From Zetaproteobacteria bacterium CG_4_9_14_3_um_filter_54_145 (GTDB lineage: Bacteria; Pseudomonadota; Zetaproteobacteria; Mariprofundales; Mariprofundaceae), in NCBI GenBank assembly GCA_002791575.1, contig PFXI01000070.1, positions 1-49,802 of the forward strand: a stretch of DNA of 49,802 nucleotides. The letters are read 5' to 3'. Positions 1 through 18,530 of this stretch are shown here, piece by piece (the first letter of the stretch is position 1; every line of letters starts with the position of its first letter). The notes beneath the pieces are model-generated. The model searched no databases and was not told the origin of the DNA. It worked only from the letters and a program-made list of their open reading frames with translations. The position numbers and the translations under genes are program-made.

Positions 1-121
1 CAATGCGATCTACTTTCACTTGGGTGCTTTGGACCTGTATCCGGCACCCAATCAGGCAGGTTCGACTTGTGCTGCCCACACAACTTCGTGAAGCGCCCCG
101 GATATTATGTGCGCTAACGTA

Positions 122-214
122 CAGTGACGGGACACTGCAAAGCATAGAGTATGTGCATTCAATGCTGTGAAGAGCATTGCATATTAATGCGGGGAGGTGC
201 CATCAAGTCTCCCC
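122..214 (+). promoter_or_regulatory. Structured leader upstream of a micro-ORF
   Basis: Three inverted repeats lie in succession before the small ORF at 234. CAGTG (122-126) pairs with CACTG (133-137). CAATGCT (160-166) pairs perfectly with AGCATTG (173-179), and can be extended by GCATT (155-159) with AATGC (186-190). GGGGAG (191-196) pairs with CTCCCC (209-214). A TATTAT hexamer at 103-108 could be a -10 box, but I see no convincing -35. The pairings are seen directly; a role in transcript stability or translation control is inference. Confidence 0.4.
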
Positions 215-233
215 CAATACAAAGGAGTTTATC

Positions 234-290
234 ATGATTGGTCTCTTGATCGTTGTCATACTCGTAATAGTCATTCTCAAGATCGTTTAA
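234..290 (+). CDS. 18-residue hydrophobic micro-protein
   Basis: The ORF encodes MIGLLIVVILVIVILKIV followed by TAA. It is preceded by AAGGAG at 222-227, an excellent ribosome binding site about six bases before the ATG. The peptide is almost wholly Val/Ile/Leu and would form one membrane helix, with a single Lys near the C-terminus. It is followed at once by a hairpin. The size, composition and structured leader recall type I toxin peptides of the Ibs class. They also resemble a shortened form of the small hydrophobic DUF3309-type membrane proteins. No homology can be claimed at this length. The strong ribosome binding site is the main reason to consider it real. Confidence 0.5.
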   Translation: MIGLLIVVILVIVILKIV

Positions 291-322
291 ACCGGCGCGT
301 GTGGGAGTCATGCGCCTGGTTT
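289..322 (+). terminator. Hairpin directly after the micro-ORF
   Basis: AAACC-GGCGC (289-298) pairs with GCGCC-GGTTT (312-322) with one bulged T at 317 and a 13-base loop. The 3' arm ends in TTT but no long U-tract follows. It could terminate or stabilise the short transcript. Confidence 0.35.
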
Positions 323-452
323 CAGAATAATGGCGGCGCTTGCCCGGCATTCGCCGCCAAACTATCAGGATGAACAATACTACGTTTGCTTCAGGCCGCA
401 TTTACCGGCTCTGTCAGGCTTGAATTTCCATTTATAGATGGAGCGATAATTT

Positions 453-1133
453 ATGCAGCTCGAAATCCGCAATCTTGCAAAGCTCTATGATCATAAAAGG
501 GGGCTTGCGCCGACCAGCTTTACAGTCAACCGGGGCGAGCTGATCGCGATTGTCGGCCATAATGGTGCCGGGAAATCCACACTGCTGAAAATACTGGCCA
601 ACTGGATTATTCCGGATGGTGGCAGCGCGCTGATGAACGGCATCGATTTGAGAAACAGGACAGCTGTTGCCAAAAACGTCGGGTTTATTCCGGAAGTGCC
701 CAACCTGTTCGACGTTTTCTCCGTTGAATACAACCTCAAGCTGTTCGCTGCGCTCTCCCGCACCCCCTTTTTGCGGGTGGAAGAGATTCTGGGCGAATTC
801 AATCTGCTGCCGTTTCGCAAAACCCGGGTACAGTCACTGTCAAAAGGCTTGAAGCAACGGGTGAACATCGGGCGCGCCCTGTTGGCGGACCCGGCACTGC
901 TTATTCTCGATGAGCCCACATCGGGCCTGGATTTCGAGATGACCAAGGAGATCCACCGGCTGTTGAACACAATGCATGCCGCCGGCAAAACCATTCTCTT
1001 CACCTCGCACCGGCCAGAAGAGATCAAGAGCCTGGCAACGCGTATCATGGTGCTGCACGAAGGCAGCCTGATCTTCGATGGCTCACCTGCGGAATATTTC
1101 CGCTCTGAAACCCATGAAAAGCTGTACGCCTGA
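453..1133 (+). CDS. ABC transporter ATP-binding protein (NatA-like)
   Basis: Cytoplasmic ATPase subunit of an ABC-2 type exporter, 226 residues, the usual size for a single-domain NatA/CcmA-like subunit. The Walker A motif GHNGAGKST is at residues 35-43. The signature LSKGLKQR lies near 130, Walker B LLILDEP near 150, and the switch histidine in TSHRPEE near 186. The ATG at 453 has GGAG nine bases upstream. The stop overlaps the start of the downstream permease by one base (TGATG), so the two are translationally coupled and form one transporter. The substrate cannot be told from sequence; NatAB-type pairs export Na+ or small toxic compounds. Confidence 0.9.
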   Translation: MQLEIRNLAKLYDHKRGLAPTSFTVNRGELIAIVGHNGAGKSTLLKILANWIIPDGGSALMNGIDLRNRTAVAKNVGFIPEVPNLFDVFSVEYNLKLFAALSRTPFLRVEEILGEFNLLPFRKTRVQSLSKGLKQRVNIGRALLADPALLILDEPTSGLDFEMTKEIHRLLNTMHAAGKTILFTSHRPEEIKSLATRIMVLHEGSLIFDGSPAEYFRSETHEKLYA

Positions 1134-2161
1134 TGATGAGAAACATTCTGCTTCTGGCATACAACGATCTGGCTATCGCACTGAAAAACAAGACCTTTCT
1201 TCTGATCCTGTTTATTCCGCTATTCGTCTTTGTTTCGCTGAATCTGGTAGACAAGATGGGTGCCGAAGCAAGCAAAGTCAGGCTCGTTATGGTTCAGGAC
1301 TATGCCTATGCCCCCGAGATCACCCGCAGCATCGATGCCGCCAGACAATTCATTGAAGTAACATGGGTTCAGGATGAAAAAGATGGTGTGCGTCTGTTGA
1401 AGGCACACAAGATAGACGGGATATTGACCCACAGTGATGAAGCAAGCGGCAGTCTTACACTGCTGGTTTTAAAGAAAGGCTCCATCCCCACCATTGCCAT
1501 CATGCAGCATTTCTCAGCCCTGCAGAAGGCGGCGGAAGGCAATGCACCCGATTGGATCCGCAGCATCAAATCGCTGCATCAGGGCGGCGTGCAACGCGAG
1601 TCGCTGCCTACCTGGATATTGATGCTGGTCCTGCTTATCGGTTTTATTATTCTGCCGACACAAGTTGCCGAGGAGAAAGAGAAGAAGCTGCTCCTGGCCC
1701 TGCTGCAGATGCCCATACACGAGATCCAGTGGCTGATTGCCAAATTGATCCTGGGCATGGTTCTGATCATCGCTGCCGTGCTGTTTCTGCATCTGCTGGG
1801 TCAGTTCGGCCCGATACATCTGCCGGACTATATCGTTTTCATCCTCGCAGGCAGTTTCTGTTTCAGCGCCTGCGGGATATGTCTGGGCTTTCTCTGCCGC
1901 AGTCAGGCCAGCGCCCGGGTGCTGGGCGTGATCTTCTATCTGCCGCTGCTGCTGCCTGCCGCGATGTCTGATGTGTCACAAAAACTGACCGCTGTTGCAC
2001 CCTTTCTGCCGTCATATCAGCTGTATCAGCCGCTTCAGTCCATACTGCTGGAAAATGGCAGATTGGCGGATATGACCTTTGACTGGGTCTATTTATGCGG
2101 GCTGGGCTTGCTGATGTGTTATCTCTCCTACCTGTTGATGAAAAGGGGCTGGCTGATGTGA
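1133..2161 (+). CDS. ABC-2 family permease (NatB-like)
   Basis: Membrane subunit paired with the upstream ATPase, 342 residues. The topology is classic for ABC2_membrane_3 proteins. One N-terminal helix lies at about residues 22-38. An extracytoplasmic domain of about 120 residues follows. At least five helices make up the C-terminal half, including WILMLVLLIGFIILP and LILGMVLIIAAVLFLHLL. The conserved helix boundary PTQVAEEKEKKLLLALLQ, typical of NatB-like permeases, sits after the second helix. Two ATGs in a row occur at 1133 and 1136; the first overlaps the stop of the ATPase gene. No neighbouring gene hints at the exported substrate. Confidence 0.85.
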   Translation: MMRNILLLAYNDLAIALKNKTFLLILFIPLFVFVSLNLVDKMGAEASKVRLVMVQDYAYAPEITRSIDAARQFIEVTWVQDEKDGVRLLKAHKIDGILTHSDEASGSLTLLVLKKGSIPTIAIMQHFSALQKAAEGNAPDWIRSIKSLHQGGVQRESLPTWILMLVLLIGFIILPTQVAEEKEKKLLLALLQMPIHEIQWLIAKLILGMVLIIAAVLFLHLLGQFGPIHLPDYIVFILAGSFCFSACGICLGFLCRSQASARVLGVIFYLPLLLPAAMSDVSQKLTAVAPFLPSYQLYQPLQSILLENGRLADMTFDWVYLCGLGLLMCYLSYLLMKRGWLM

Positions 2162-2217: not shown

Positions 2218-3066
2218 CTAAAGTGATTGCAGGCCGGAGCTCAGTGATTTGAATTCATGATGATCCGGCCCAATCAGGCCATGACGCAACAGAAAGTCGA
2301 TCACCACCAGGTTGCAGTTGGGTTTAAAGGCATCACTCTCAGCCACCATGCGCGCCACATTCTCTATCCGCCACAGATAGAATCCGGCCACCTCACCATC
2401 GGTGCAAACTGGCTTGAATGCAGCCGGCAGACTCAGGTCATAACAGTAGATGGTATCCGAGCGCAGCCCGGCTTCAGTTTCGCGCCGGTAAGTGATCACA
2501 CTTGTGGCAACCGCCTGTGCTGCCAGTTCAGGTGCAATACCCGCCTCTTCCTCACACTCCTTGGCAAGGTTCTCTTCGGCCGTGATGCCGAATGGAAAAC
2601 CACCTGCCACCATCTGATCGAGCAGATCCGGAAAGGTGTGCCGATCTGCTGCACGCCGGCCAACCCACATCAACAGGCCATCGTCACTCTCCACGAAGCC
2701 ATTCACATGCTGACCAAATGAGCGCACGCCAAAAACAGATACAGCAGCCCTATCCAGCAAAAATGCAGGCGACTCGCTCCTGTCATTCAAAACAGGGTAG
2801 AGCTCCCCCATCAGATGATCGAGCAGACCGAGGCGAACCAGCTCAATCAGCACCTCAGCCACCGCACTGTTGCGCGCCTCAAAGCTCTGCAAGGCAGGAT
2901 GCAGCGCCACCTGGCGATCATCCACGACAAATACAGCCGGGAAACGCCGCAGCTCGCCGGCAAAGGCCGGGCGCATCCATCCATAACCCACTGCCCCCAC
3001 AATAAAGGGGATAAAATTGTCCGGATTCCACCGGTTACACTGTTCGATATGACGCGTATAGTTCAT
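2218..3066 (-). CDS. DUF4743 and Nudix hydrolase
   Basis: 282-residue protein with an N-terminal DUF4743-like domain (about 1-120) and a C-terminal Nudix domain. The Nudix box reads GGFPFGITAEEN then LAKECEEEAG, which fits G-x5-E-x7-xE-x2-EE-x-G with a Cys in place of the usual residue after the first catalytic Glu. This two-domain architecture is found in the yeast YJR142W/Tnr3 family, linked to hydrolysis of damaged thiamine diphosphates. That role is a family-based inference. The ATG at 3066 has a GGTGGA-like site just upstream. The gene is convergent with the ABC permease; a 9-bp inverted repeat (2159-2167 with 2204-2212) spans the junction. Confidence 0.75.
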   Translation of the reverse strand: MNYTRHIEQCNRWNPDNFIPFIVGAVGYGWMRPAFAGELRRFPAVFVVDDRQVALHPALQSFEARNSAVAEVLIELVRLGLLDHLMGELYPVLNDRSESPAFLLDRAAVSVFGVRSFGQHVNGFVESDDGLLMWVGRRAADRHTFPDLLDQMVAGGFPFGITAEENLAKECEEEAGIAPELAAQAVATSVITYRRETEAGLRSDTIYCYDLSLPAAFKPVCTDGEVAGFYLWRIENVARMVAESDAFKPNCNLVVIDFLLRHGLIGPDHHEFKSLSSGLQSL

Positions 3067-18059: not shown

Positions 18060-18170
18060 CTCAGGATCTGCCCATCATGGTTGTAGCGACGTGGTTCATG
18101 TATGACTCTATGCAAGGTGATACCCCCGGATGCAGCCCAAGGCTAACGGCAAAGGGCAGGAAGATAAAAT

Positions 18171-18530
<360 letters not shown>

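What the first reader, a model, noticed from the sequence alone, without database searches (positions are those of the whole stretch)
122..322. 18-residue hydrophobic micro-ORF in a hairpin-rich leader
A strong ribosome binding site, an all-aliphatic 18-residue peptide, three leader hairpins and a 3' hairpin form a compact unit. This organisation recalls type I toxin mRNAs, where a structured leader and an antisense RNA control a toxic membrane peptide. No antisense RNA promoter was identified with confidence.
Basis: partly seen in the sequence, partly recalled or inferred. Interest (0 to 1): 0.5.

Follow-up and report, generated by a model that had tools for sequence, protein, structure and literature searches.

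The report
Tiny membrane protein beside ABC exporter
An 18-residue, almost purely hydrophobic peptide gene turns out to belong to a protein family shared by bacteria of several phyla and nearly always found beside one particular export pump, so it is most likely a tiny stress-related membrane partner of that pump rather than an antisense-controlled toxin.

Summary
The ORF is real: window 234-290, MIGLLIVVILVIVILKIV, behind AAAGGAG. It belongs to an apparently undescribed microprotein family (18-24 aa, one presumed membrane span) encoded upstream of a dedicated ABC exporter (ATPase 453-1133, ABC-2 permease 1133-2161). Of 20 orthologous exporter loci with upstream DNA, 18 carry one to three such ORFs within 0.7 kb of the ATPase, one 5.2 kb upstream, and one none that I found. 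In 395 genomes of one phylum, permease and micro-ORF occur in the same four. Selection acts on the peptide: pairwise differences at codon positions 1/2/3 are 0.40/0.14/0.62, and one Leu is invariant in 25 of 25. The leader barely folds better than chance (z -1.7) and its stems are mostly not kept in two relatives; antisense promoter-like sites are weak and share no common place. Neighbours include stress genes and sigma-54 activators. Most likely it is a stress-induced transmembrane partner of the exporter; the main rival is that it is the exporter's cargo. No expression, toxicity or binding data exist here.

The parts
108..123 (.). Palindrome TGTGCGCTAACGTACA (half-site spacing as in CRP/FNR-family sites, recalled), putative operator, starting 126 bp before the ATG
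   Evidence: 12 of 12 consensus positions; also at -126 (G028, 11/12), -131 (L065, 12/12) and, weakly, -121 (L049, 10/12, reached by 8.5% of shuffles); 0 of 15 other loci reach 10. No other match with up to 3 mismatches to the 22-bp form in the own genome.
122..137 (+). Leader stem 1 (5 bp)
   Evidence: kept 5/5 in G028 (three through G-U), 3/5 in L049
160..179 (+). Leader stem 2 (7 bp), not kept in relatives
   Evidence: 3/7 and 3/7
191..214 (+). Leader stem 3 (8 bp); only a loose positional counterpart in relatives
   Evidence: 4/8 and 4/8; covariation term +1.66
221..227 (+). Shine-Dalgarno AAAGGAG
   Evidence: GGAGTTTATCATGATTGGT identical in G028
234..290 (+). Micro-ORF, 18 aa, MIGLLIVVILVIVILKIV, stop included
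290..321 (+). 3' hairpin directly after the stop
   Evidence: z -3.32; the stretch after the last micro-ORF folds at z -2 or lower in 11 of 18 loci, the window itself at -1.82 over the whole gap
331..359 (+). Second 3' hairpin
   Evidence: 290-370, z -2.61
453..1133 (+). ABC ATPase, 226 aa (PF00005)
   Evidence: 80% identical in G028
1133..2161 (+). ABC-2 permease, 342 aa (PF12698)
   Evidence: 48-82% identity to 16 orthologues; AF2 model nearest to type V ABC exporters

Best explanation
The locus is a compact envelope-stress module. A stress-responsive promoter drives a very short mRNA segment encoding an 18-aa single-span inner-membrane protein, followed by hairpins and then a dedicated two-gene ABC-2 exporter. 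Shown here: the peptide is conserved as a peptide, is tied genetically to this exporter across phyla, and often sits among stress genes. Inferred: it inserts as one helix (C-terminus in the cytoplasm by the positive-inside rule; 20 of 25 members have Lys or Arg near the C-terminus, list), may be made in excess over the exporter because of the intercistronic hairpin, and acts as a small accessory or modulating subunit packed against the permease, as AcrZ does for AcrB or CydX for cytochrome bd (analogy, not homology). The palindrome is inferred to be the site of a Crp-family regulator; in Desulfobacterota loci that role is inferred to be taken by sigma-54 promoters and NtrC-type activators.
For: Linkage: 18 of 20 exporter loci adjacent, 1 at 5.2 kb, 1 without. 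Permease (E <= 1e-60) in 4 of 395 genomes, the same 4 with short micro-ORF hits (Fisher 1e-9, not corrected for relatedness). In the own phylum, of 7 pattern hits in 398 genomes only the two beside the exporter are free-standing micro-ORFs. Peptide-level selection: codon-position differences 0.40/0.14/0.62 over 300 pairs; Leu 25/25, Leu 24/25, Val 23/25 and Ile 23/25 in a 16-residue core aligned by hand offsets without gaps. All 22 GRAVY>=2 rows among 209 GGAG-preceded 15-30-aa ORFs (overlapping loci counted more than once) are family members. Peptide and permease distances correlate (Mantel r 0.45, P 0.0007, 16 loci). Strong conservation between phyla fits a structural partner better than a fast-changing bacteriocin. 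Stress context.
Against: No physical, expression or phenotypic data. One locus (L060) keeps the exporter without a recognisable micro-ORF, and in G412 the micro-ORF is 5.2 kb away, so the partner is not strictly adjacent. A one-sided conserved helix face, expected for a packed subunit, was not significant (P about 0.10). Tandem divergent copies in 5 of 19 loci fit a cargo or a membrane-acting peptide as well. The intergenic stretch is not unusually structured in 7 of 18 loci, the window included. A complex of peptide and permease was not modelled.
Confidence: 0.45

Rival explanations
1. The peptide is the cargo: a leaderless, membrane-active or signalling peptide that the exporter extracts and exports, which also protects the producer (as Pmt does for phenol-soluble modulins; recalled).
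For: Strict linkage to an exporter; tandem, diverging copies in 5 of 19 loci; structured stretches after the micro-ORF in 11 of 18 loci that could raise peptide over exporter; the permease model is nearest to type V exporters such as a ceramide-bound ABCH, ABCA and ABCG; the ATPase resembles drug-resistance and lantibiotic-protection ATPases, at scores far below the curated cut-offs.
Against: The sequence is strongly conserved between phyla, unlike typical bacteriocins or pheromones (recalled); it is uniformly hydrophobic, not amphipathic; no peptide-processing gene among the 19 neighbours scanned.
Confidence: 0.3
2. A stress-induced membrane-acting peptide that lowers membrane potential or rigidifies the membrane on its own (type I toxin-like or YohP-like), with the exporter handling the consequences.
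For: Size and hydrophobicity match IbsC (19 aa) and similar toxins (PMC8309996, passages read) and the stress-linked YohP (27 aa; PMC12719787, abstract read); tandem copies; stress neighbours; a slight excess of antisense promoter-like sites over shuffles.
Against: Leader stems mostly not kept; no antisense promoter place shared by more than 3 of 19 loci, and two of the three shared places lie over start or stop codons; exporter linkage is not expected of a free-acting toxin.
Confidence: 0.12
3. A cis-acting leader peptide: its translation controls the downstream exporter genes by attenuation or coupling.
For: Short ORF with a strong SD, followed by hairpins, upstream of an operon.
Against: The stop-to-ATPase distance runs from 15 to 682 bp and is 5.2 kb in G412, with other genes between in G028 and G412; up to three copies; conservation at the amino-acid level.
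Confidence: 0.06

Closest known systems
Small accessory membrane proteins of transporters and membrane complexes (AcrZ-AcrB, CydX-CydAB, KdpF-KdpABC)
   Same: Very short hydrophobic membrane proteins acting on one membrane complex (AcrZ: PMC7267776 abstract read; CydX: PMC4325964 abstract opening seen in a listing; KdpF recalled).
   Different: Shorter (18-24 aa); partner is an ABC-2 exporter; no sequence relation shown; tandem copies in 5 of 19 loci; stress-gene setting.
YohP of E. coli
   Same: A membrane protein under 30 aa linked to stress (PMC12719787 abstract).
   Different: No exporter linkage known to me; 27 aa; sequences were not compared.
IbsC/SibC-type type I toxin-antitoxin
   Same: IbsC is a 19-aa peptide with a predicted membrane helix (PMC8309996 passages); Ile/Val/Leu-rich and in repeated copies (recalled).
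   Different: Leader stems mostly not kept and no shared antisense promoter place here; bound to an ABC exporter; conserved across phyla.
Phenol-soluble modulins with the Pmt exporter (recalled; only a search listing seen)
   Same: Leaderless short peptides with a dedicated ABC exporter; several tandem peptides.
   Different: Modulins are amphipathic and secreted; these peptides are uniformly hydrophobic and highly conserved.

Membership tests
Type I toxin-antitoxin (Ibs/Sib-like) | Hydrophobic peptide under 60 aa with a presumed membrane helix | tested here: met
   18 aa, GRAVY 3.38; the helix itself is inferred
Type I toxin-antitoxin (Ibs/Sib-like) | Antisense RNA that pairs with the toxin mRNA | tested here: inconclusive
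   One antisense 9/12 site (259-231; 1 found, 1.4 expected in 2 kb); over 19 loci mean best score 8.16 vs 7.09 shuffled, above the shuffle mean in 13 of 19, no place shared by more than 3; no RNA data
Type I toxin-antitoxin (Ibs/Sib-like) | Conserved leader structure controlling translation | tested here: inconclusive
   Mostly negative, on three sequences only: stem 1 kept 5/5 in G028 but 3/5 in L049, stems 2 and 3 not kept; fold z -1.71
Type I toxin-antitoxin (Ibs/Sib-like) | Overproduction stops growth or depolarises the membrane | not testable with these tools
   Needs expression
Small accessory subunit of a transporter | Genetic linkage to the transporter | tested here: met
   18 of 20 adjacent, 1 distant, 1 absent; same 4 of 395 genomes
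Small accessory subunit of a transporter | Position-specific conservation on a packing face | tested here: inconclusive
   Fixed Leu/Val/Ile columns; periodicity P about 0.10
Small accessory subunit of a transporter | Physical association with the transporter | not testable with these tools
   Needs pull-down, crosslinking or structure
Named small-protein families in Pfam or NCBIfam | Match above the curated cut-off | tested here: not met
   Relatives of 21-24 aa: 4 scanned in NCBIfam and 5 in Pfam, none reaches a cut-off; the 18-aa peptide itself is below the 20-aa minimum and was not scanned
Cis-acting leader peptide | Constrained position relative to the regulated gene | tested here: not met
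   Stop-to-ATPase 15-682 bp, 5.2 kb in one
Secreted leaderless peptide with dedicated exporter (Pmt-like) | Peptide found outside, exporter-dependent | not testable with these tools
   Needs culture work

The most novel reading that the evidence does not exclude
An undescribed family of 18-24-residue proteins, among the shortest conserved bacterial proteins, is a dedicated transmembrane partner of a type V ABC exporter. The pair moves between phyla as one envelope-stress module and is wired to Crp-family control in Pseudomonadota and to sigma-54 control in Desulfobacterota.
Probability: 0.45. Interest if true: 0.75.

Novelty: new variant of a known kind. Interest (0 to 1): 0.6.

Why it matters
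Proteins this short escape annotation. Here a purely comparative test shows that an 18-residue reading frame is conserved across phyla and tied to one exporter, which makes a testable two-partner system out of an ABC transporter of unknown substrate and gives a clean case for how little sequence a functional membrane protein may need. It also shows how a lookalike of a type I toxin can be told apart by context and peptide-level conservation.

Tried and rejected
Leader covariation: three sequences; only stem 1 is kept, and only in G028. Extra copies in the own genome: none (next best E 1.8). Rfam over the window: only RNase P. Helix-face periodicity: not significant. Plasmid and viral-contig searches for the permease: no relative. 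PDB by sequence: no match. The first sigma-54 scan used a wrong offset for the -12 element and was repeated correctly. My note 3 gave the G412 micro-ORF as 2.2 kb upstream; note 4 corrects it to 5.2 kb. The G092 hit is the C-terminal end of a 452-aa frame, not a micro-ORF. The short palindrome with up to 2 mismatches has fewer real than control hits in the own genome (11 vs 19), and none of the ten other sites I looked at precedes a family micro-ORF, so only the long form is informative. The palindrome-plus-SD pattern hit 9 of 398 genomes; besides the window and G028, the other seven loci (L073-L079) gave no hydrophobic SD-preceded ORF in the scan. L061 (contig begins inside the permease) and the seven distant ABC-2 loci L066-L072 (22-31% identity) were left out of the 20-locus count; L066-L072 also gave none. 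The pattern finds a short ORF in 14 of the 17 micro-ORF-bearing genomes among the 18 (G398, G404, G410 missed), and the GRAVY scan finds 21 of 25 micro-ORFs, so absences are soft. Papers: searches are listings only; abstracts and outlines read for PMC12719787 and PMC7267776; passages for PMC8309996; PMC10903887 searched for six terms with no occurrence. No paper on this family was found in these searches; that is not proof of absence.

Full report
WHAT IS THERE. The window starts at the first base of contig C71 of its genome. Bases 234-290 encode MIGLLIVVILVIVILKIV behind AAAGGAG (221-227), followed by two hairpins (290-321, 331-359), an ABC ATPase gene (453-1133) and an overlapping ABC-2 permease gene (1133-2161). 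Of 8 GGAG-preceded ATG ORFs of 15-30 aa in the whole window, this is the only one with GRAVY of 2 or more. The leader folds only slightly better than shuffles (z -1.71, 11 of 200).

CONSERVATION. There is no second copy in the own genome. Among 61 genomes (own and 60 relatives), only G028, of the same family but another genus, has a clear DNA match (E 3e-12; next best 0.01): ribosome binding site and ORF at 83% over 69 bases, encoding MIGVLLIVLLVMVILKVS, with the same ATPase (80%) and permease (82%) downstream and an extra gene between that resembles a receiver domain (28.9 bits, just under Pfam's cut-off of 30.2). The ATPase (E <= 1e-40) is in 2 of 61 genomes and the permease (E <= 1e-15) in 2 of 78 of the class: the module is patchy.

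THE FAMILY. With the window, G028 and two more loci found later (G558, G591), 20 loci have DNA upstream; L061 was dropped because its contig begins inside the permease. 18 of 20 have one to three short hydrophobic ORFs within 0.7 kb of the ATPase. L064's genome G412 has one 5.2 kb upstream, with co-oriented genes between, including DUF5670, a Transgly_assoc (GlsB-like) gene and a hybrid histidine kinase. L060 has none that I could find. In all, 25 micro-ORFs of 18-24 aa in 19 loci; five loci have two or three in tandem. Record titles name Gallionella, Desulfobulbaceae, Desulfuromonadales, Syntrophaceae, Desulfotignum, Chitinivibrionales, Nitrospirae, Bdellovibrio, Manganitrophus and Seongchinamella, by recall at least five phyla.

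CHANCE AND LINKAGE. A degenerate pattern (GGAG, ATG, hydrophobic core) in the 18 exporter-bearing genomes hit 17 places; 16 are micro-ORFs and one the start of a 310-aa frame; it found 14 of the 17 micro-ORF-bearing genomes. In 395 genomes of the phylum of G406 it hit 26 genomes; only four hits are ORFs of 30 aa or less (G401, G406, G558, G591), each beside the exporter. The permease profile (E <= 1e-60) found the exporter in exactly these four (Fisher 1e-9 without correction for relatedness). In 398 genomes of the own phylum, 7 were hit: the window and G028, four starts of frames of 267-514 aa, and the end of a 452-aa frame. A pattern-free scan of the DNA fetched until then agreed: all 22 rows with GRAVY of 2 or more (21 micro-ORFs, one with two possible starts), among 209 SD-preceded short ORFs with overlapping loci counted more than once, are family members; it missed 4 of the 25.

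SELECTION ON THE PEPTIDE. Over 300 pairs of the 16-codon core, aligned by hand offsets without gaps, differences at codon positions 1, 2 and 3 are 0.40, 0.14 and 0.62. One Leu is invariant (25/25, several codons); others are Leu 24/25, Val 23/25, Ile 23/25. In 165 pairs with at least 60% DNA identity, 10.5 residues are identical against 6.9 expected for random substitutions. Peptide and permease distances correlate (Mantel r 0.45, P 0.0007, 16 loci, L060, L063, G558 and G591 not included). A conserved helix face is not significant (P about 0.10).

RNA AND ANTISENSE. Pairs kept in G028 and L049: stem 1 5/5 and 3/5, stem 2 3/7 and 3/7, stem 3 4/8 and 4/8, 3' hairpin 5/12 and 4/12; refolding stem 3 gives a covariation term of +1.66. 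So, on these three sequences, the leader is mostly not conserved as a structure; the leaders of the other loci were not aligned. The stretch after the last micro-ORF (up to 260 bases, which cuts the gap in G028, L050, L059, G558 and G412) folds at z -2 or lower in 11 of 18 loci; the window has -1.82, and L062's gap of 15 bases cannot be tested. Antisense sigma-70-like sites: mean best score 8.16 against 7.09 in shuffles, above the shuffle mean in 13 of 19; one place is shared by window and L049 (over the start codon), one by L055, L056 and L063 (at the stop codon), one by L059 and G591, the rest differ. Coding constraint can explain the first two; an antisense RNA is neither shown nor excluded.

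CONTROL. The palindrome TGTRCG-N4-CGYACA (10 of 12 or better within 500 bp, 233 bp in the window) is in 4 of 19 loci (window, G028, L065 and, weakly, L049) at -121 to -131 from the ATG. In L065, 5 sites of 11 or better lie in 11 kb, among them one about 90 bp before CsbD and one just before a Crp-family gene; in L049 one lies about 90 bp before the likely CsbD start; the window has 2 in 49.8 kb, L034 2 in 14 kb, and five other 11-kb loci none. That a Crp-family protein binds it is inference from spacing and neighbourhood. Sigma-54 -24/-12-like sites scoring 10 or more lie within 600 bp upstream in 8 of 19 loci (L050, L051, L052, L053, L057, G558, G591, G412; in L053 and L057 ahead of the CsbD gene) against 1 of 19 on the other strand. 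Sigma-54 activators are neighbours in L050, L051, L059 and G412. CsbD or BON genes are neighbours in L049, L052, L053, L054, L055, L057 and L065 (L057 by sequence likeness only).

THE EXPORTER. The permease is PF12698, has one NCBIfam match at E 0.026, far below its cut-off, and no PDB chain by sequence. The AF2 model (pLDDT 70.6, pTM 0.60) is nearest to type V ABC exporters (ABCH, ABCA, ABCG, NosFY; best E 5e-7, TM 0.59), many of which move lipids or other hydrophobic compounds (recalled). The substrate is unknown. It was not found in plasmids or viral contigs.

READING. What is shown: a conserved, selected, exporter-linked micro-ORF family, often in a stress setting. What is inferred: membrane insertion, topology, partnership with the permease, regulation. 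I put a stress-induced transmembrane partner first (0.45), the exporter's cargo second (0.30), a free membrane-acting peptide third (0.12) and a cis leader last (0.06). Mending the antisense and leader statements on re-check did not change these odds.

Noticed in passing
L063 5001-6032: The permease frame of Candidatus Manganitrophus is broken (two pieces in different frames) although both micro-ORFs are intact; a real loss or an assembly error.
   Followed up: no
L065 4041, 6946, 8874, 9817, 10508: Five copies of the TGTRCG-N4-CGYACA palindrome in 11 kb beside CsbD, BON, DUF5670 and a Crp-family gene: a possible stress regulon with a recognisable operator.
   Followed up: partly
L009 855-1325 (-): In G028 a gene resembling a receiver domain (28.9 bits, cut-off 30.2) lies between micro-ORF and ATPase.
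   Followed up: partly
L123 2570-8509 (-): In G412 the micro-ORF, DUF5670, a lipoprotein-like, a GlsB-like, a coiled-coil-like, a LapA-like and a hybrid histidine kinase gene precede the exporter in one co-oriented run of about 6 kb (three of these names by eye only).
   Followed up: partly
window 18169-18528 (-): RNase P RNA, class A (RF00010), 330.6 bits.
   Followed up: no
window 2218-3066 (-): Convergent gene with DUF4743 and NUDIX domains next to the exporter.
   Followed up: no
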